Below, in pieces: positions 1 to 5,648 of a stretch of 5,648 nucleotides of DNA. The position numbers and the translations under genes were made by a program. The DNA comes from Weeksellaceae bacterium (GTDB lineage: Bacteria > Bacteroidota > Bacteroidia > Flavobacteriales > Weeksellaceae): assembly GCA_022701475.1 (NCBI GenBank), contig JAKOOI010000457.1, positions 1-5,648 on the forward strand, written 5' to 3'. Under the pieces are notes generated by a model, which was given only the letters and a program-made list of their open reading frames with translations, ran no database searches and was not told where the DNA came from. How positions within the stretch are numbered: the stretch's first letter is position 1; the number at the start of each line of letters is the position of its first letter.

Positions 1-1360
1 CGGTCTGTTCAGGGTCATTCGCAGGATCAAATTTATCGGTAAAGGCCGCCACGGAACCGAAGAATAACGGACCGGAAATTTCATAATATTTAATTCCGTT
101 TTCACCGGTATGCTTTCTGGCGCGGATTCTTTTGGCATTGTCCCAGGCAAAAACCAGGGCCGCAATCACGACTCCGACCAGGACCGCCAGTGCCAGATTA
201 TGCAAAACAATGGTCACCAATGCAACCACAATCCCTACGAAGATATCCGACTTCGGCATTTTATTGACGATCCGGATCGATACCCACTGGAACGTGCTTA
301 CTGCCACTACCATCATTACGCCGACAAGGGCAGCCATCGGGATGCGTTCAATGACAGGCGCTCCTACCAGAATAATAATCAGAATGGTAAAAGAGGCTAT
401 TATCGCTGAAAGCCGGGTCCTTGAACCGGCATTCAGATTTACCAGGGTCTGGGCTACCATCGCACAGCCTCCCATTCCGCCGAAAAAGCCGTTGGTGATA
501 TTGGCCAGGCCCTGGGCTACCGCTTCTTTGTTGGCATTTCCTTTGGATTCCGTGATTTCATCCACCATGGATAAAGTGAGCAGGGATTCAATCAGGCCGA
601 CGCCTGCCATAATAAGGGCATACGGGAAAATAACCTGCAGGGTTTCCAGCGAGACAGGAATTGCCGGGATATGGAAAGAAGGAAGGCTTCCGCTGATGCG
701 GGCGATGTCCGCTACCGTTTTGGTGGGAATCCCGAATCCTGCAGCAATAGCAAAAACCACAATAATGGCCACCAGCGATGCCGGAACGGCTTTCGTGATT
801 TTAGGGAAAAGACACACAACAGCCACCGTCAGTGCTGTTAGTCCGGCCATAATATAAAGTGAATCCCCCTGAATCCAGCCTGAAGTTCCGTCTGCGCCTG
901 TTGTTTTAAACTGTTCTATCTGTGCCATGAAGATAATCACGGCCAGGCCGTTCAGAAAGCCATACATGACCGGCTGCGGGATCAGCCGTACGAATTTCCC
1001 CCATTTGAACAGGCCGACAAGCATCTGAAGCAGGCCTCCGAGCGCTACCGTAGCAAAAAGATATTCTATGCCATGGGTCTTGATCAGGGCAATCAGCACA
1101 ACAATGGTAGCACCTGCACCTCCGGATACCATTCCTGGGCGGCCTCCCAGAATGGCAGTCACCAATCCCATCATAAAAGCAGCATACAATCCGGTGAGCG
1201 GGGAAAGCCCGGCCAGGATGGCGAAAGAGAGCGATTCGGGAATCATGGTCATGGCAACGGTAAAACCTGCCAGTAATTCGTTCCTGTAATTTATATTTTG
1301 TGGAAAACCGGGGAGATGGAGTGTATTTTTCATTTCGGCAACAAAGGTAGGCTGTTCCAT
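1..1360 (-). CDS. SulP family anion permease, C-terminus cut by window edge
   Basis: Inner-membrane transporter of the SulP/SLC26 family, which moves sulfate, bicarbonate or related anions; the substrate cannot be told from sequence. The minus-strand frame is open from ATG at 1360 to base 1, giving about 453 residues. An in-frame TGA lies a short way upstream and no other ATG intervenes, which fixes this start; a second ATG at 1333 is possible. Near residues 38-46 is the SulP signature PESLSFA, followed by AGLSPLTGLYAAF. Many hydrophobic segments follow, with GVGLIESLLT near residue 254 and the glycine-rich NGFFGGMGGC after it. Around residue 425 the protein turns hydrophilic and enters a STAS domain (KYYEISGPLFFGS near 425-437). 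Family members of this short type run to roughly 500 residues, so perhaps 50 are missing. GC content is clearly higher than in the right half of the window. Plus-strand open frames over this region are shadows. Confidence 0.95.
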   Translation of the reverse strand, partial: MEQPTFVAEMKNTLHLPGFPQNINYRNELLAGFTVAMTMIPESLSFAILAGLSPLTGLYAAFMMGLVTAILGGRPGMVSGGAGATIVVLIALIKTHGIEYLFATVALGGLLQMLVGLFKWGKFVRLIPQPVMYGFLNGLAVIIFMAQIEQFKTTGADGTSGWIQGDSLYIMAGLTALTVAVVCLFPKITKAVPASLVAIIVVFAIAAGFGIPTKTVADIARISGSLPSFHIPAIPVSLETLQVIFPYALIMAGVGLIESLLTLSMVDEITESKGNANKEAVAQGLANITNGFFGGMGGCAMVAQTLVNLNAGSRTRLSAIIASFTILIIILVGAPVIERIPMAALVGVMMVVAVSTFQWVSIRIVNKMPKSDIFVGIVVALVTIVLHNLALAVLVGVVIAALVFAWDNAKRIRARKHTGENGIKYYEISGPLFFGSVAAFTDKFDPANDPEQT

Positions 1361-1529
1361 TTTCAAAAACAATATTTCGTGGTATCTCGATTTAAAATTT
1401 CACAATAAGGAGGGTATCTGTTTGCCTGTTTGTCAAAGAACAGCGACTTCATTATTTCACTGCATAAACGATATATATAAGGTAATTTTAATCAAAATTC
1501 ACTTTTCCTAAAATTTTTTAACTCATTTT
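1361..1529. other. Intergenic region upstream of the SulP gene
   Basis: AT-rich non-coding DNA between the SulP gene (leftward) and the rightward promoter at 1530-1560. The SulP promoter should lie here, but I found no exact TAnnTTTG box on the minus strand. No RNA gene or convincing repeat is visible. Confidence 0.5.
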
Positions 1530-2437: not shown

Positions 2438-2782
2438 ATGCGCCCCAATTACAGTAAAATTTATAAGGACATGATTACAGAACATGATCCTGAGAAACTG
2501 GAAGACCCGAAGATACAGCGGATGCTGAAGAATTTAAAAACAACGGAAGATGTCCTGAAACTGAACGAGCTGGTATTCAAATCCTCCAAAGAAAGCCTGA
2601 GGAATAACCAGAAGCTGAAGACCTATGACAAAAAGACGATGCTTAAGCTGCTGCAGTACCAGCAGAAACACGGCCTGTCTACCAATTACATGTCTAAAAA
2701 ATACAGGATCAGCAGGACGACTATTGCAAAATGGAAAAAAACTTTTGAAGAAGAGTTTCAGAAATTAGCTGAAAAAAAATAG
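2438..2782 (+). CDS. Small HTH protein, partner of the preceding gene
   Basis: A 114-residue, very basic protein with one clear helix-turn-helix at about residues 86-108 (HGLSTNYMSKKYRISRTTIA, followed by KWKK), again of the transposase/homeodomain-like type. The N-terminal part (PNYSKIYKDMI, then DVLKLNELVF, then QKLKTYDKKTMLKLLQYQQ) is helical and resembles a conserved Chryseobacterium family that I recall always downstream of the 138-residue type. It begins 12 bases after that gene stops and ends 20 bases before a strong terminator, so the two form a closed two-gene operon. No catalytic domain is present. A joint regulatory role is inferred; database names such as transposase would be misleading. 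Confidence 0.8.
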   Translation: MRPNYSKIYKDMITEHDPEKLEDPKIQRMLKNLKTTEDVLKLNELVFKSSKESLRNNQKLKTYDKKTMLKLLQYQQKHGLSTNYMSKKYRISRTTIAKWKKTFEEEFQKLAEKK

Positions 2783-2802: not shown

Positions 2803-2841
2803 AAAAAAGTCCGGTGAATCAGCTGATTCACCGGATTTTTT
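2803..2841. terminator. Strong bidirectional Rho-independent terminator
   Basis: Positions 2810-2835 are a perfect 26-bp palindrome (arms TCCGGTGAATCAG and CTGATTCACCGGA) flanked by AAAAAA at 2803-2808 and TTTTTT at 2836-2841. It ends the HTH operon on the plus strand, 20 bases after its stop codon. On the minus strand it ends the Y RNA region, directly abutting the 3' strand of Y6. Confidence 0.92.
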
Positions 2842-2981
2842 ATAAAGGTAACAGGCGGAAAAAGAAAAAGCGGGGCAACGTTATGCCGGAGTCGAACCGG
2901 ATAGCCTTGCAGGAAGTACCTGCTGCGCTATTCCTCCCCTTTTAATGGTAACGAAGGATCTTTTTCCTACGACACTTTATA
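2841..2981 (-). ncRNA. Y RNA-like RNA Y6, with an unpermuted tRNA-like module
   Basis: A 141-nt structured RNA closed by helix 1 (TATAAAG 2981-2975 with CTTTATA 2847-2841) and helix 2 (GGAAAAAGA 2967-2959 with TCTTTTTCC 2865-2857). The loop between them is TGTCGTA on the 5' side and GCCTGTTAC on the 3' side, the feature shared by all six RNAs here and resembling the Ro60-binding site of Y RNAs. The distal part has a canonical T arm (CCGG, loop TTCGACT, CCGG; 2900-2886). It also has a D-arm-like TAGCGCAGCAGGTA (2930-2917), 13 of 14 bases like Y4, but refolded into a longer hairpin (ATAGC/GCTAT, then GCAGG/CCTGC). GGGG (2939-2936) and CCCC (2875-2872) could close both hairpins. Here D precedes T, unlike Y1 and Y4. 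It follows the SUKH gene and ends at the shared terminator. Confidence 0.75.
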
Positions 2982-2992
2982 TTTTACACGTA

Positions 2993-3012
2993 AAAACAGA
3001 ATAACCTGTTTT
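2993..3012 (-). terminator. Weak terminator-like hairpin after the SUKH gene
   Basis: On the minus strand AAAACAG (3012-3006) pairs with CTGTTTT (2999-2993) over a 6-base loop, ending in a short T run. A second hairpin without a T tract lies at 3037-3059 (ACAGG-GAAT stems). Either could trim or partly end the SUKH message before Y6. The stem is AT-rich, so the call is weak. Confidence 0.3.
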
Positions 3013-3068
3013 GTAAATCCGTAATCATTTTTTATTACAGGCGAATAAAATTCTCCTGTTAAGATCCA

Positions 3069-3842
3069 TTATTCCAGGCCGAAATCGCGGAGACCGGAAG
3101 AATAAGACAGAACCACTTCTTTCAGGTAAGGGATATCCCTGGTTTCATCATATTGGAAACTCTTTTCAATGGGTTCCGTTGCTTCCCTGCTGAGTTCCGG
3201 ATAATACATCCGGTCTTCTTCATCAAAAACCAAACGGACAATACCGATATGATTCCGCATCTCATTAAGCAGGTACGTCTTTATGTCCCATCCCAGTATA
3301 CCCATGTCGAAACCGCTGATGCAGAGTACCGGTTTCCAGGCAAGATGTTCGCCGCTTACCATAAAATGGAATCCTCTTACCGGCAGAAGATCCGGAATTC
3401 GGGAAAACCATTCATTAAAAACAGCCCTCCGTTCTTCTTCGGATCCCGGTTCCGGTCCCCAGGATTTCAACCAGCATGTTCCGGCGGATCCCATATCCTT
3501 CAGCATGGAATCATAAGGATACCGGATCATCTCCAGGATTTCTTCCCGTTCTTCCCGCCAGTTATAGAAGAAAGTACATTCTTCAGTGAACTTTTCATTA
3601 TTGTATTCGTATTCCACGGTTTCCTTTCTGTCAACCGCATGGAGAATTTTCAGGAATTCACGGTGTTCAGGGGAAAACTTCACTTTATATTCCCTTTCTA
3701 TCCCTGCGATCTCTTCTTCTGCGAGCGGCAGCCATTTTGCCCCGTGCAATCCTTTCGGGACTGTGTTTTCATCAGACCAGGTCTTTTCTGTCCGGTCTCT
3801 GATCCAGTACAAAAAATCTGTTATGTTTTCTGGTATGTCCAT
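3069..3842 (-). CDS. SUKH superfamily (SMI1/KNR4-like) protein
   Basis: A 257-residue soluble protein with no signal peptide or membrane segment. Residues 38-72 (LPLAEEEIAGIEREYKVKF, then SPEHREFLKILH) carry the typical SMI1/KNR4 start: a helix, a Gly/Lys turn, a Phe-Pro-like stretch and an FLK helix. Later conserved-looking parts are CWLKSWGPEP (123-132), DLLPVRGFHFMVS (151-163) and PVLCISGFDM then GWDIKTYLLNE (171-194). SUKH proteins are best known as immunity proteins against contact-dependent and polymorphic toxins, many of them nucleases, but other members have housekeeping roles. No toxin gene is adjacent. The start at 3842 lies about 20 bases after the 3' strand of Y5 and its T run, and Y6 follows after the stop, so this is the only protein gene embedded in the Y RNA array. 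Whether it works with the RNAs is unknown. A long plus-strand frame over the same DNA is a shadow. Confidence 0.85.
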   Translation of the reverse strand: MDIPENITDFLYWIRDRTEKTWSDENTVPKGLHGAKWLPLAEEEIAGIEREYKVKFSPEHREFLKILHAVDRKETVEYEYNNEKFTEECTFFYNWREEREEILEMIRYPYDSMLKDMGSAGTCWLKSWGPEPGSEEERRAVFNEWFSRIPDLLPVRGFHFMVSGEHLAWKPVLCISGFDMGILGWDIKTYLLNEMRNHIGIVRLVFDEEDRMYYPELSREATEPIEKSFQYDETRDIPYLKEVVLSYSSGLRDFGLE

Positions 3843-3862
3843 TTCATTTACAATAGTAATAA

Positions 3863-3970
3863 AAAAGAGTCAATAAACGGGAAAGCTTTATACACCATTC
3901 AGGTTTATTCCGGAGTTGAACCAAGATCATAAGATATACCGAAGTAAACTTTCCCTGACGGCACTCTTTT
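3863..3970 (-). ncRNA. Y RNA-like RNA Y5, with T arm and acceptor only
   Basis: A 108-nt RNA with two perfect 7-bp closing helices: AAAAGAG (3970-3964) with CTCTTTT (3869-3863), and GGGAAAG (3955-3949) with CTTTCCC (3885-3879). The internal loop is TGCCGTCA on the 5' side and GTTTATTGA on the 3' side; of the six it is closest to the vertebrate Y RNA lower stem as I recall it (CCG opposite UUGA). The distal domain has a T arm (3925-3909, loop TTCAACT, G-U rich stem). It continues into acceptor strand ATAAACC (3908-3902), linker TGAAT and opposite strand GGTGTAT (3896-3890), 6 of 7 paired. There is no D arm or anticodon stem, so it amounts to a tRNA minihelix. It begins 8 bases after Y4 ends and finishes with a run of six T. 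Confidence 0.8.
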
Positions 3971-3978
3971 GTTTTTAA

Positions 3979-4117
3979 ATCAGGGTAATAATGTAAGAAT
4001 CTTCTGTCATTTGCTCTACCTGCTGAGCTACATCCCGTTTACAACAGAGATGGCAGGAATCGAACCTGCGACCCAATGGTTAACTATCCGAAGTATGATT
4101 CTGAAACGACACCTGAT
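3979..4117 (-). ncRNA. Y RNA-like RNA Y4, with a nearly complete permuted tRNA module
   Basis: A 139-nt RNA closed by ATCAGG (4117-4112) with CCTGAT (3984-3979) and AGAATC (4102-4097) with GATTCT (4001-3996). The loop is TGTCGTTTC on the 5' side and TACATTATTAC on the 3' side. The distal part is a tRNA in circularly permuted order: anticodon-stem strand CCATT (4079-4075), variable GGGTC, T arm with perfect stem GCAGG/CCTGC and loop TTCGATT (4069-4053), acceptor 3' strand CATCTCT (4052-4046), linker GTTGTAAA, acceptor 5' strand CGGGATG (4037-4031), TA, D arm GCTCAGCAGGTAGAGC (4028-4013), then AATGA (4011-4007). AATGA pairs with CCATT except at one position. The Y stem replaces the anticodon loop, which agrees with the published picture of YrlA as a tRNA mimic. 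The absence of free acceptor ends and of an anticodon makes a working tRNA unlikely. Confidence 0.85.
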
Positions 4118-4170
4118 CTTTATGATTAATAAATAATGGGTAGTAATATTGCTTTGCTAAGCCGGATCAC

Positions 4171-4198
4171 TCATTACCCATTACCCATTGCTCATTAC
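4171..4198. repeat. Four tandem copies of a 7-bp unit
   Basis: TCATTAC, CCATTAC, CCATTGC and TCATTAC follow one another exactly in register (consensus YCATTRC). A partial inverted copy (AATGGGTAGTAAT) lies at 4135-4147, so the minus-strand RNA between Y3 and Y4 could fold into an imperfect hairpin. Similar heptamer runs occur in flavobacterial intergenic DNA as I remember it; the role is unknown. Confidence 0.65.
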
Positions 4199-4208
4199 TT
4201 ATTTTTAC

Positions 4209-4277
4209 ACCGGGCAATCTGCAGAAAGCGTTTTTAGTTCAATGAAAGTCGAAGGAACTCTTTCTTACGGCACCGGT
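4209..4277 (-). ncRNA. Y RNA-like RNA Y3, short form without tRNA module
   Basis: A 69-nt RNA with helix 1 ACCGG (4277-4273) and CCGGT (4213-4209), and helix 2 AGAAAG (4265-4260) and CTTTCT (4228-4223). The internal loop is TGCCGTA on the 5' side and GCAGATTGC on the 3' side, the same pattern as in its neighbours. In place of a tRNA module there is a simple hairpin, AGTTC (4259-4255) with GAACT (4240-4236), whose loop begins CTTCG. CTTCG, or CATCG in Y2, also follows the 5' strand in the other members. Its promoter is the second TGCGTA/TAnnTTTG copy (4317-4352). Y4 and Y5 lie downstream with no visible promoter of their own. Confidence 0.75.
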
Positions 4278-4316
4278 TGCTTTTTAAGTTTTCATGGTTG
4301 TTGTTATTTGTTGATG

Positions 4317-4352
4317 CAAAATTACTCTGTCAGTACGCATTGTTTTTACGCA
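4317..4352 (-). promoter_or_regulatory. Regulated promoter for Y3-Y4-Y5, copy 2
   Basis: On the minus strand two TGCGTA hexamers (4352-4347 and 4339-4334, 13-bp period) precede the -7 box TAATTTTG (4324-4317). There is no good TTG at the -33 position, which the second hexamer overlaps. The arrangement repeats almost exactly upstream of Y1, so the hexamers are probably a binding site for an activator. Transcription would start about 35-40 bases before helix 1 of Y3. Confidence 0.65.
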
Positions 4353-4371
4353 GCTGAAATTTAATTTGAAA

Positions 4372-4457
4372 AACCAAGTAATAAGTTGTAACCGTTTTTT
4401 GAATGTTGTTCAAATTTTAAGCTTGACGATGGAACGCTTACGGAGACGACATTGGTT
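4372..4457 (-). ncRNA. Y RNA-like RNA Y2, short diverged form
   Basis: An 86-nt RNA found by the shared internal loop. Helix 1 is AACCAA (4457-4452) with TTGGTT (4377-4372). The loop is TGTCGTCTCC on the 5' side and AACTTATTAC on the 3' side. Helix 2 is GTAAGCGTT (4441-4433) with AACGGTTAC (4396-4388), two 4-bp blocks around one G-G mismatch. The distal loop is AT-rich and has no tRNA module. It begins 7 bases after Y1 ends, as Y5 does after Y4, and ends in a short T run. It is the least certain of the six because the loop is longer and helix 2 is imperfect. Confidence 0.62.
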
Positions 4458-4464
4458 ATTTTTA

Positions 4465-4593
4465 GCAGGGTAAAAAAGCAGACAGAAACTTACTGATGGA
4501 GTGATCCTTTACACCATCCCGGAATTCCGGGAGCAGGACATGAACCTGCATTGCCACCTCTGAAACGAAGAAATCCTGTCTTACGACACCTGC
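4465..4593 (-). ncRNA. Y RNA-like RNA Y1, with a permuted tRNA module
   Basis: A 129-nt RNA closed by GCAGG (4593-4589) with CCTGC (4469-4465) and AGACAG (4581-4576) with CTGTCT (4485-4480). The internal loop is TGTCGTA on the 5' side and GCTTTTTTAC on the 3' side. The tRNA module is permuted. Anticodon-stem strand GGTGG (4558-4554) pairs fully with CCATC (4499-4495), with one G-U. A T arm with perfect stem GCAGG/CCTGC follows (4549-4533). The acceptor strands are TCCCGGA (4532-4526) and TCCGGGA (4523-4517), joined by only two bases, and then comes a D arm GTG-TAAAGGAT-CAC (4514-4501) with the usual GG. The T loop is TTCATGT, which lacks the A normally found at tRNA position 58. It is the first unit after promoter copy 1. 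Confidence 0.85.
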
Positions 4594-4666
4594 TTTTTTA
4601 AGTTCTTATGGTTATTGTTATTTGTTGATGCAAAGTTATTGCCTTAGTACGCATTCTTTTTACGCA
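4580..4666 (-). repeat. Duplicated promoter-leader segment upstream of Y1
   Basis: About 87 bases here match 4264-4352 upstream of Y3, with one small length change and scattered substitutions. They cover the hexamer pair, the -7 box, a 30-40 base leader and the first bases of the RNA including GTGYCGTAAGA. The two transcription units therefore arose by duplication, while the RNA bodies behind them (129 nt tRNA-like against 69 nt short) have diverged completely. Confidence 0.8.
4631..4666 (-). promoter_or_regulatory. Regulated promoter for Y1-Y2, copy 1
   Basis: Minus-strand TGCGTA at 4666-4661 and 4653-4648 (13-bp period), then TAACTTTG at 4638-4631, matching TAnnTTTG. As in copy 2 the -33 TTG is missing. 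The region between the hexamers and the -7 box differs between the two copies while hexamers and box are kept, which supports a functional role. Confidence 0.68.
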
Positions 4667-4680
4667 CTTAAAAATTATTT

Positions 4681-4868
4681 GTTCTTTTGCCTTGAAGCAA
4701 AAGAACCAAAAATTCAAGACTTGGAAACTCCGGCTAAAAATAAGCTGTACGATCTAAAAATTCTAAACTTGCGCGACTTCATTATTTGTCTTCTTTTTCT
4801 ACTTTTGTGTCGCGCTTCAGACACTAGAATTTTCTTAACGTTCGTACAGCTTATTTTCTTAACGCCTG
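4681..4868. repeat. Long imperfect inverted-repeat element, probably dispersed
   Basis: First a perfect 10-bp hairpin, GTTCTTTTGC (4681-4690) with GCAAAAGAAC (4697-4706). Then a long interrupted stem: AAAATAAGCTGTACGA (4737-4752) with its complement at 4842-4857, AAAATTCTA (4757-4765) with TAGAATTTT (4825-4833), and GCGCGAC (4771-4777) with GTCGCGC (4809-4815). I recall very similar sequences scattered in Chryseobacterium intergenic regions. It encodes no credible protein; an open frame at 4622-4903 merely runs through it. It separates the DUF4145 gene from the Y1 promoter. Confidence 0.65.
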
Positions 4869-4889: not shown

Positions 4890-5498
4890 TTATTTCATCT
4901 TAGGCTTTCCTAATTTATCTAGTTTTAAATTTAATTCCTGTTTTCTTTTCTCTAATTTTTTAGGCTGAATAAAAACAAAATCAAACAGCTGTTCAATCAC
5001 TTCAATAAGCCATTCTGCTTCGCCACTCTCGACAGGAACAATTTCACCTGTACTTAAATCTTTAGAAGGATGCGCTGCAATATTTCCAATTTGCCTTACA
5101 GCATCAACTGCATCTGTAATGTGTGAAGGAATATCTGTCTTATCAGTAAAGATTTCAATTTCTTTAGCTAAACTTTTCTCTGAAATATTGAATTCTTCTC
5201 TTAAAATATTCTGCAATAATCTTCTCGTTAATGCAGCAGAAGCTTTTGGACTAGCTGAAAGTACTTTTACAGCTTCTTCATAGTCTTCTAAATACTTCTT
5301 TGGTATGTTACTTGAATTTTGAAAATCATTAGTTTTTGGATAAATTAATTTCTTCGAAGCTATTGTATCGATTTCCAAGCTGAAATTTCCATTAACTTTT
5401 AACTTTCCATTTTGTATTCCAACTACTAATTTATCGCAATTAGGACATTCTCCATAAAAAATCTCAATCCCTTCTTTTTTATCATCAGTTTGTTTCAC
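4890..5498 (-). CDS. DUF4145 protein, N-terminus lost to a nonsense codon
   Basis: From the GTG at 5498 the frame gives 202 residues. CPNC at residues 18-21 is half of a zinc ribbon. The DUF4145 core follows: EEAVKVLSASPKASAALTRR then LLQNILREEF (74-103), and the hallmark RQIGNIAAHP (135-144). A lysine-rich tail ends the protein. DUF4145 domains occur alone and in restriction and other defence-type proteins; their biochemical role is not settled. The same frame continues upstream to ATG 5561 with CPHC, the other half of the zinc ribbon, but a TAG at 5522-5520 interrupts it. Translation from the GTG would give a protein without that half, so the gene is probably inactive or reduced. Its base composition is much more AT-rich than that of the SulP and SUKH genes, which suggests acquisition by transfer. 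No promoter with a perfect -7 box is seen upstream. Confidence 0.75.
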   Translation of the reverse strand: MKQTDDKKEGIEIFYGECPNCDKLVVGIQNGKLKVNGNFSLEIDTIASKKLIYPKTNDFQNSSNIPKKYLEDYEEAVKVLSASPKASAALTRRLLQNILREEFNISEKSLAKEIEIFTDKTDIPSHITDAVDAVRQIGNIAAHPSKDLSTGEIVPVESGEAEWLIEVIEQLFDFVFIQPKKLEKRKQELNLKLDKLGKPKMK

Positions 5499-5561: not shown

Positions 5562-5607
5562 ATTTATTGTAGTTTATATGGTTGATTAAATATACTAAAG
5601 TTATTGC

Positions 5608-5648
5608 TAGCCCCGATTGCAACGGCATCCTTTTTCTGTGAAGGCCTT
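5608..5648. other. Possible dispersed flavobacterial motif at the right edge
   Basis: TAGCCCCGATTGCAACGGCA followed by TCCTTTTT and the palindrome AAGGCCTT resembles a motif I have often seen in flavobacterial intergenic DNA, usually as one arm of a larger hairpin. The window ends inside it, so the partner arm cannot be checked. It lies upstream of the DUF4145 gene. Confidence 0.35.

What the first reader, a model, noticed from the sequence alone, without database searches (positions are those of the whole stretch)
2841..4593. Six Y RNA-like RNAs in one array
Seen: six minus-strand units each have two complementary closing helices whose sequences differ completely while the pairing is kept. 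The internal loop begins TGYCGT on the 5' strand in all six and ends TTAC (Y1, Y2, Y4, Y6), TTGC (Y3) or TTGA (Y5) on the 3' strand. Known: the Ro60/Rsr-binding stem of Y RNAs is a helix interrupted by such a loop, with CCG-type bases opposite UUGA-type bases. Inference: this is a multi-copy Y RNA locus of a flavobacterium, far richer than the one or two Y RNAs usually described per bacterium. No TROVE (Ro60/Rsr) gene is in the window; one should be in the genome.
Basis: partly seen in the sequence, partly recalled or inferred. Interest (0 to 1): 0.95.

Follow-up and report, generated by a model that had tools for sequence, protein, structure and literature searches.

The report
Array of tRNA-mimicking Y RNA genes
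A genome fragment of a Chryseobacterium-type bacterium carries six different predicted small RNA genes of the Y RNA kind, four of them with a tRNA look-alike part; in relatives such arrays follow the gene for a Ro60-like protein that is predicted to bind them, which would make this an unusually rich toolkit for handling damaged RNA.

Summary
Six minus-strand units (2841-4594) share a core: outer helix, bulged U, G-Y/R-C step, internal loop, inner helix. Across 426 units from 72 loci the variable Y and R pair in 423 (C-G 200, U-A 202, U-G 21). In 71 relatives' loci, 444 of 447 such units lie on the rsr (TROVE/Ro60) strand within 6 kb downstream of rsr, in the window's gene order. Strong model matches occur in 82 of 85 TROVE-positive genomes (118 searched); the three exceptions hold only a divergent second TROVE gene. 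The window's contig ends before the expected rsr, so its own rsr is unseen.
Arrays hold 3-11 units (median 8 in 60 named loci), of 11 types. Seven types carry a T-arm; two are clear circularly permuted tRNA mimics; one type, absent here, carries up to 33 nt identical to 23S rRNA. The array shares a promoter element with rsr, rtcB, RlaP, a second TROVE gene and a Band_7 gene. I read it as a modular set of Rsr-bound adaptors or decoys in an RNA-repair regulon. Expression, Rsr binding and function are untested here.

The parts
4629..4653 (-). promoter element TGCGYA-N10-WAYTTTGCA upstream of unit 1
   Evidence: exact match; within the repeated leader 4595-4680, 83% like 4281-4366
4464..4594 (-). 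unit 1 (type 6): Y core with T-arm, acceptor-like hairpin and a weak D-arm-like part
   Evidence: 5-bp T-arm; type 6 has 40 units in 39 loci
4372..4457 (-). unit 2 (type 2): short unit without T-arm
   Evidence: weakest fold (z -0.71); type 2 has 55 units in 51 loci
4315..4339 (-). second promoter element, upstream of unit 3
   Evidence: exact match; within the repeated leader 4281-4366
4209..4277 (-). unit 3 (type 5): core-only unit, 69 nt
   Evidence: type 5 has 43 units in 36 loci
3977..4119 (-). unit 4 (type 0): Y core with circularly permuted tRNA-like domain (T-arm, acceptor, D-arm)
   Evidence: Rfam YrlA match 4077-4006, 36.3 bits
3863..3970 (-). unit 5 (type 1): Y core with a 4-bp T-arm and a hairpin
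2841..2981 (-). unit 6 (type 3): Y core with acceptor-like GGGG/CCCC stem, hairpin and T-arm
2804..2841 (.). terminator-like inverted repeat directly after unit 6
   Evidence: 19-nt arms, 95% complementary, followed by a T-run on the minus strand

Best explanation
The window holds six paralogous Y RNA-type units, likely transcribed as small RNAs, which are predicted to be bound by an Rsr (Ro60) protein and likely act as interchangeable adaptors of one RNA-repair hub. Shown by sequence: one conserved core with different inserts, a T-arm in four of six units, a clear permuted tRNA-like domain in unit 4 and a partial one in unit 1, rsr upstream of such arrays in relatives, and a promoter element that also stands before rsr, rtcB and RlaP genes. 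Inferred: the array is transcribed as one or a few precursors when RNA is damaged and cut into RNAs of about 70-145 nt. Rsr holds each by the core. Each exposed module then recruits, or distracts, an enzyme or nuclease that handles the RNA it imitates (different tRNAs; 23S rRNA in relatives), so that one Rsr scaffold serves several RNA classes.
For: Covariation of the core; G-U 83 against A-C 26 in the outer helix, pointing to minus-strand RNA. 444 of 447 units downstream of and on the strand of rsr. Co-occurrence: 82 both, 2 model-only, 3 TROVE-only, 31 neither, of 118; one model-only genome, G039, has the C-terminal end of rsr at its contig edge, the other is the window's own incomplete genome, and the TROVE-only ones have just a 32-35% paralog. 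Gene order (SulP, two HTH ORFs, array) as in L013 and L019. T-arm in 81 of 81 type 0, 40 of 40 type 6, 63 of 67 type 1 and 44 of 47 type 3 units against 0.8-1.8 expected from shuffles. Shared promoter element.
Against: No RNA-seq, no binding data. The window's own rsr is not in the assembly. The Rfam YrlA score is below its curated cut-off. Single-sequence fold scores are modest. Two of six units (types 2, 5) have no T-arm, so tRNA mimicry cannot be the whole function. D-arm likeness is strong only for types 0 and 4; for types 6, 9 and 10 it is within two s.d. of shuffles. In the covariation test other registers of the 3' strand also paired in up to 61.7-86.5% of cells, the core being A/T-rich. 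The adaptor role rests on analogy with published YrlA.
Confidence: 0.7

Rival explanations
1. The units are Y RNAs, but their modules are baits: they absorb or report nucleases that cut tRNA or 23S rRNA, rather than recruiting processing enzymes.
For: Modules copy tRNA arms and, in relatives, a 23S stretch; the promoter element also stands before RNA-repair genes; extra tRNA arrays lie in the same island in two genomes looked at. [quoted passage not shown]
Against: In types 0 and 4 the anticodon arm is replaced by the Y core, so anticodon nucleases would lack their site; the same passage says YrlA's domain is not a substrate of that nuclease. No nuclease partner is known here.
Confidence: 0.3
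2. The array is decayed tRNA or mobile-element debris without function.
For: Many T-arm pieces; extra tRNAs nearby in two relatives; a repetitive stretch at 4122-4195.
Against: Compensatory pairs, recurrent order of types, linkage to rsr, and arrays in Chryseobacterium, Epilithonimonas and Flavobacterium.
Confidence: 0.03
3. The repeats work as DNA hairpins (attC-like or REP-like sites), not as RNA.
For: Same-orientation units with conserved ends.
Against: Wobble pairs favour one strand (U-G 21 against C-A 3; G-U 83 against A-C 26); promoter elements and a terminator-like repeat flank the units; none of the five window ORFs scanned matched an integrase or recombinase family.
Confidence: 0.02

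Closest known systems
YrlA (Y RNA-like A, Rfam RF02553)
   Same: stem from the two ends; T-arm, acceptor, D-arm in permuted order; unit 4 matches model positions 23-88 of 114
   Different: score 36.3 against a curated 69; several different modules per locus, some without a T-arm; arrays of up to 11 units instead of the one or two per genome that I recall and that the Salmonella rsr-yrlBA operon shows (PMC7790460, passages)
Salmonella rsr-yrlBA-rtcBA RNA repair operon
   Same: rsr, Y RNA genes and rtcB under common control
   Different: there one operon under the activator RtcR (PMC7790460, passages); here separate loci that share a promoter element TGCGYA-N10-WAYTTTGCA, with RlaP, Band_7 and a second TROVE gene besides
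Deinococcus Rsr-Y RNA-PNPase complex (RYPER)
   Same: a Y RNA would join an Rsr protein to a partner
   Different: there the partner, PNPase, is known (PMC4726728 and PMC7790460, passages); here no partner is known
Anabaena TrcR regulon
   Same: extra tRNA array, rtcB and a slipin gene under one control (PMC10272220, passages)
   Different: other binding site; no Rsr or Y RNA in the passages read

Membership tests
bacterial Y RNA (Rsr-binding RNA) | helix formed by 5' and 3' ends with a bulge and internal loop | tested here: met
bacterial Y RNA (Rsr-binding RNA) | gene linked to rsr | tested here: inconclusive
   met in 71 of 71 relatives' loci where rsr was located; in the window the contig ends first
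bacterial Y RNA (Rsr-binding RNA) | bound and stabilised by Rsr | not testable with these tools
   needs pull-down
YrlA (RF02553) | permuted tRNA-like domain | tested here: met
   unit 4; unit 1 in part; not shown in units 2, 3, 5, 6
YrlA (RF02553) | Rfam gathering score 69 bits | tested here: not met
   36.3 bits, unit 4 only; so not filed as an RF02553 member
rsr-yrl-rtcBA operon | rtcB next to the Y RNA genes | tested here: not met
   RtcB on contig C507, window on C30
RYPER | Y RNA tethers PNPase | not testable with these tools
   biochemistry
tRNA gene | ARAGORN-detectable tRNA | tested here: not met
   0 genes in the window

The most novel reading that the evidence does not exclude
A single Ro60-type protein carries a genome-encoded library of molecular look-alikes: up to eleven Y RNAs per locus, presenting different imitations (tRNAs, and in some species the 23S rRNA stretch around helices 69-71), expressed with RtcB, RlaP and extra tRNAs from one damage-responsive promoter type, so that one scaffold is addressed to each class of RNA that toxins or stress can break. 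The second TROVE gene has the same design turned inside out: a whole tRNA shape whose anticodon arm is the Y core.
Probability: 0.35. Interest if true: 0.95.

Novelty: new variant of a known kind. Interest (0 to 1): 0.87.

Why it matters
What bacterial Y RNAs do beyond tethering Rsr is, as far as I know, an open question. A conserved set of Y RNA-type units that share a core and differ in the attached module makes it directly testable: delete or swap one module and ask which partner or RNA class is lost. The 23S-like type would extend Y RNA mimicry from tRNA to ribosomal RNA, and the shared promoter element gives a way to find the stress that turns the kit on. My searches of the held library (several lists were capped) listed no paper that, by title and abstract, is about such arrays in these bacteria; but primary papers and reviews on bacterial Y RNAs that I looked up are not held, so they may describe some of this.

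Tried and rejected
Looked for rsr in the own genome with PF05731: none; a protein search then found only the divergent paralog fragment. Considered real tRNA genes: none by ARAGORN. Considered one covariance model for all units: not built, because the inserts differ too much; built two type-specific ones. R1 also scores ordinary tRNAs (inferred from E-values of 1e-5 to 1e-7 in genomes without arrays), so the raw tally 118 of 118 means nothing; I used the gap between 1.1e-20 and 1.3e-7. R1 and R2 were trained on units from these loci, the window's included, and those units had passed the stem scan, so they match and pair partly by construction. A first tRNA comparison was wrong because its search caught the core's CUUCG; replaced. 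Assigning single tRNA identities to types 6, 9, 10, 1 and 3 was given up: D-arm scores are near shuffled ones. Type 7 showed no T-arm and I found no source for it. Rfam gave no LSU rRNA hit in L041, L042 or L023 at E 0.5; the 23S match rests on blastn with the genus's own 23S. A motif-based locator missed rsr in L065, so that locus was dropped from the counts; its genome G084 does hold rsr at 81%.
Full report
1. What is in the window. The window is the whole contig C30 (5,648 bp) of a 73%-complete genome. Same-genus genomes have contigs whose lengths equal named Chryseobacterium records (for example G055:C6 and C. taiwanense, 171,751 bp), so I take it as a Chryseobacterium-type bacterium (inference). 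Genes: SulP transporter 2-1372 (-), two ORFs with weak HTH matches 2009-2425 and 2438-2782 (+), an ORF 3069-3842 (-) inside the array with a SUKH match below cut-off, a DUF4145 ORF 4890-5498 (-).

2. The six units. The scan found six minus-strand units with scores 12-18. Each has an outer helix of 5-8 pairs, UGYCGU, an inner helix of 4-10 contiguous pairs, UURC (UUGA in unit 5) and the outer 3' strand. Control: 11 hits in three Markov sets of 74 records.

3. Relatives. I took regions around rsr from 72 of the 85 genomes with TROVE matches. rsr was located by a motif in 71 of 73 loci, not in L065 and the window. At score 12 or more, 444 of 447 units lay on the rsr strand and within 6 kb downstream; three lay on the other strand. 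At score 13 or more each of the 71 loci has 3-10 units. The gene order rsr, array, two small ORFs, SulP in L013 and L019 is that of the window read from the other strand.

4. Structure. Homologs were retrieved with the middle part of scanned units (for the short types 2 and 5 this keeps some inner-helix bases), then aligned; the 3' register was the best-pairing one. The outer six pairs hold in 98.7% of cells (type 0, 114 homologs), 99.1% (type 1, 75), 92.5% (type 3, 62), 98.7% (type 4, 124), 89.5% (type 5, 85), 98.7% (type 6, 61), 98.8% (type 7, 16), 100% (type 8, 19) and 99.5% (type 2, 67); the best register more than 3 columns away gave 61.7-86.5%, the mean of registers 27-41%. Two-sided changes are clear in types 0, 3, 4, 5, 6 and 8; types 1, 2 and 7 hardly vary there and say little. 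RNAalifold, on scanned units, gives 20 of 31 pairs with at least one two-sided change for types 0 and 4 together (34 sequences) and 17 of 35 for type 3 (20 sequences). The variable Y of UGYCGU and R of UURC, which the scan leaves free, pair in 423 of 426 units. Wobble counts favour the minus strand as RNA.

5. Types. 432 units (score 13 or more in relatives, 12 or more in the window) gave 426 after overlap removal, falling into 11 groups and two singletons. Window order is 6, 2, 5, 0, 1, 3; in the eight loci whose order I printed, the types recur in a similar order, though type 5 can occur twice or three times. Types 0, 1, 3, 4, 6, 9, 10 hold a T-arm (4 or more pairs around a 7-nt loop) in 81/81, 63/67, 44/47, 41/44, 40/40, 11/11 and 6/8 units; types 2, 5, 7 and 8 in none. 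In types 0 and 4 (up to 40 units each) the D-arm side scores 17.8 and 18.5 against tRNAs of G055, shuffled best 9.2 and 9.0 (s.d. 1.2 and 0.9): clear permuted tRNA mimics. Type 3 has its T-arm after a hairpin inside a GGGG/CCCC stem. Types 2 and 5 are short.

6. 23S rRNA-like type. Type 8 (13 units in 13 loci; 17 of 80 named loci; not in the window) is 222-232 nt long. All 13 units match the 23S of two same-genus genomes over 25-33 nt at 84.8-100%, two of them 33 of 33 (E 2e-9). The rest of the module shows no such match. That the stretch is the helix 69-71 region is recalled knowledge.

7. Extent. With R1, 84 of 118 genomes have a strong match: 82 with TROVE, G039, and G000 itself. G039 has the last 74 residues of rsr (88% identity) at its contig edge; G017, G034 and G063 gave only the divergent TROVE paralog. 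Of 232 named relatives found the best 80 were kept. Among L145-L213 (69 loci, mostly Chryseobacterium, two Epilithonimonas), 60 with full downstream DNA hold 3-11 units by homology, median 8, a lower bound since one composite type counts two as one. Two of the 69 have none; their contigs end 0.2 and 1.7 kb after rsr. Eleven further loci, ten labelled Flavobacterium or Flavobacteriaceae and one labelled Limnohabitans, show 2-8 same-strand scan hits, one of them upstream of rsr and two overlapping. In all 80 named loci nine hits (score 13 or more) lie on the opposite strand. One more distant genus (G431, rsr 46% identity) has a single 81-nt core-only unit right after its TROVE gene: growth of the array from one core is a likely history, not shown.

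8. Regulon. TGCGYA-N10-WAYTTTGCA: 114 hits in 68 of 72 loci on the array strand, none on the other; 65 within 400 bp before the rsr start (median 58 bp), 41 within 250 bp before a unit, 8 elsewhere. The pattern was drawn from these loci, so this part is descriptive. In 10 whole genomes it occurs 38 times against 1 for the reversed pattern. Loci were given for 30 of the 38 sites. Of 20 downstream proteins put through Pfam: RtcB 4, RlaP 4, Band_7 5, TROVE 2, short-chain dehydrogenase 2, no family 3, one of these the own second-TROVE fragment. In the own genome the five sites lie before the array (two), a Band_7 gene (C201), the second TROVE gene (C232) and RlaP (C507; PF10127). The element also occurs in same-genus genomes without an array (G072 has four), so the regulon is wider; it is found in 175 of 296 family genomes, 12 of 33 genera, and outside the genus reversed-pattern hits occur too. 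Neighbouring units are 20 nt or less apart in 203 of 354 cases and TANNTTTG was found before 0 of 226 units with gaps under 60 nt, 23 of 128 with wider gaps and 23 of 72 first units, background 5.5%; a terminator-like hairpin follows the last detected unit in 48 of 72 loci. Processing of a shared transcript is therefore likely.

9. The second TROVE gene. Found in 11 of 118 genomes, one of them (G063) split by a stop. In all 12 loci read (11 genomes) a leader precedes it: a tRNA shape in normal order whose anticodon arm looks like the Y core closed at its far end, then a core-only unit, then the start codon. Rfam scores the first as tRNA at 40-43 bits in three of four loci searched. This circular permutant fits the view that Y core plus tRNA body is one design.

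10. Mechanism, shown and inferred. Shown: sequence, structure, linkage, shared promoter element. From passages of PMC8394870: YrlA mimics tRNA, is modified by DusA and TruB, and its stem binds Rsr. From passages of PMC7790460: rsr, yrl and rtcBA form an operon switched on by DNA damage and tRNA fragments. Inferred: that this array makes Rsr-bound RNAs, that modules recruit or distract RNA-handling enzymes, and that RNA damage induces it.

Noticed in passing
L233:3261-3494; L272-L283: A second, divergent TROVE gene has its own leader RNAs: a normal-order tRNA shape with what looks like the Y core in place of the anticodon arm, then a core-only unit.
   Followed up: partly
L236, L241, L247, L259, L262 leaders; L023:9200-9560 (-): Band_7 (slipin-like) genes have leaders of about 700-790 nt with two T-arms and D-arm-like parts in permuted order, under the same promoter element.
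   Followed up: partly
L243 leader (304 nt before RtcB): One RtcB leader holds a T-arm-like 3' part and a D-arm-like 5' part more than 100 nt apart.
   Followed up: no
L268, L270 (G055:C6 and G101:C1): 21 and 18 ARAGORN tRNAs upstream of rsr, in a region that begins with the same promoter element and holds genes resembling RNA-repair genes.
   Followed up: partly
L019:58-4806: Upstream of rsr: R2K ATP-grasp, cyclic-phosphate receiver domain, RLIG1 RNA ligase, metallo-hydrolase, phosphoesterase and two RNase_T exonucleases.
   Followed up: partly
window 5605-5648 (+): Weak partial Flavo-1 RNA (22 bits, E 0.35, cut by the contig end); Flavo-1 RNAs above the gathering score lie near rsr in 6 of 12 relatives' loci, which fits rsr being just off the contig.
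   Followed up: partly
window 3069-3842 (-): SUKH-like ORF (match below cut-off) between units 5 and 6; a similar ORF start follows the type 1 unit in several relatives.
   Followed up: no
window 4673-4857: Inverted repeats 4673-4690/4697-4714 and 4737-4752/4842-4857 of unknown nature.
   Followed up: no
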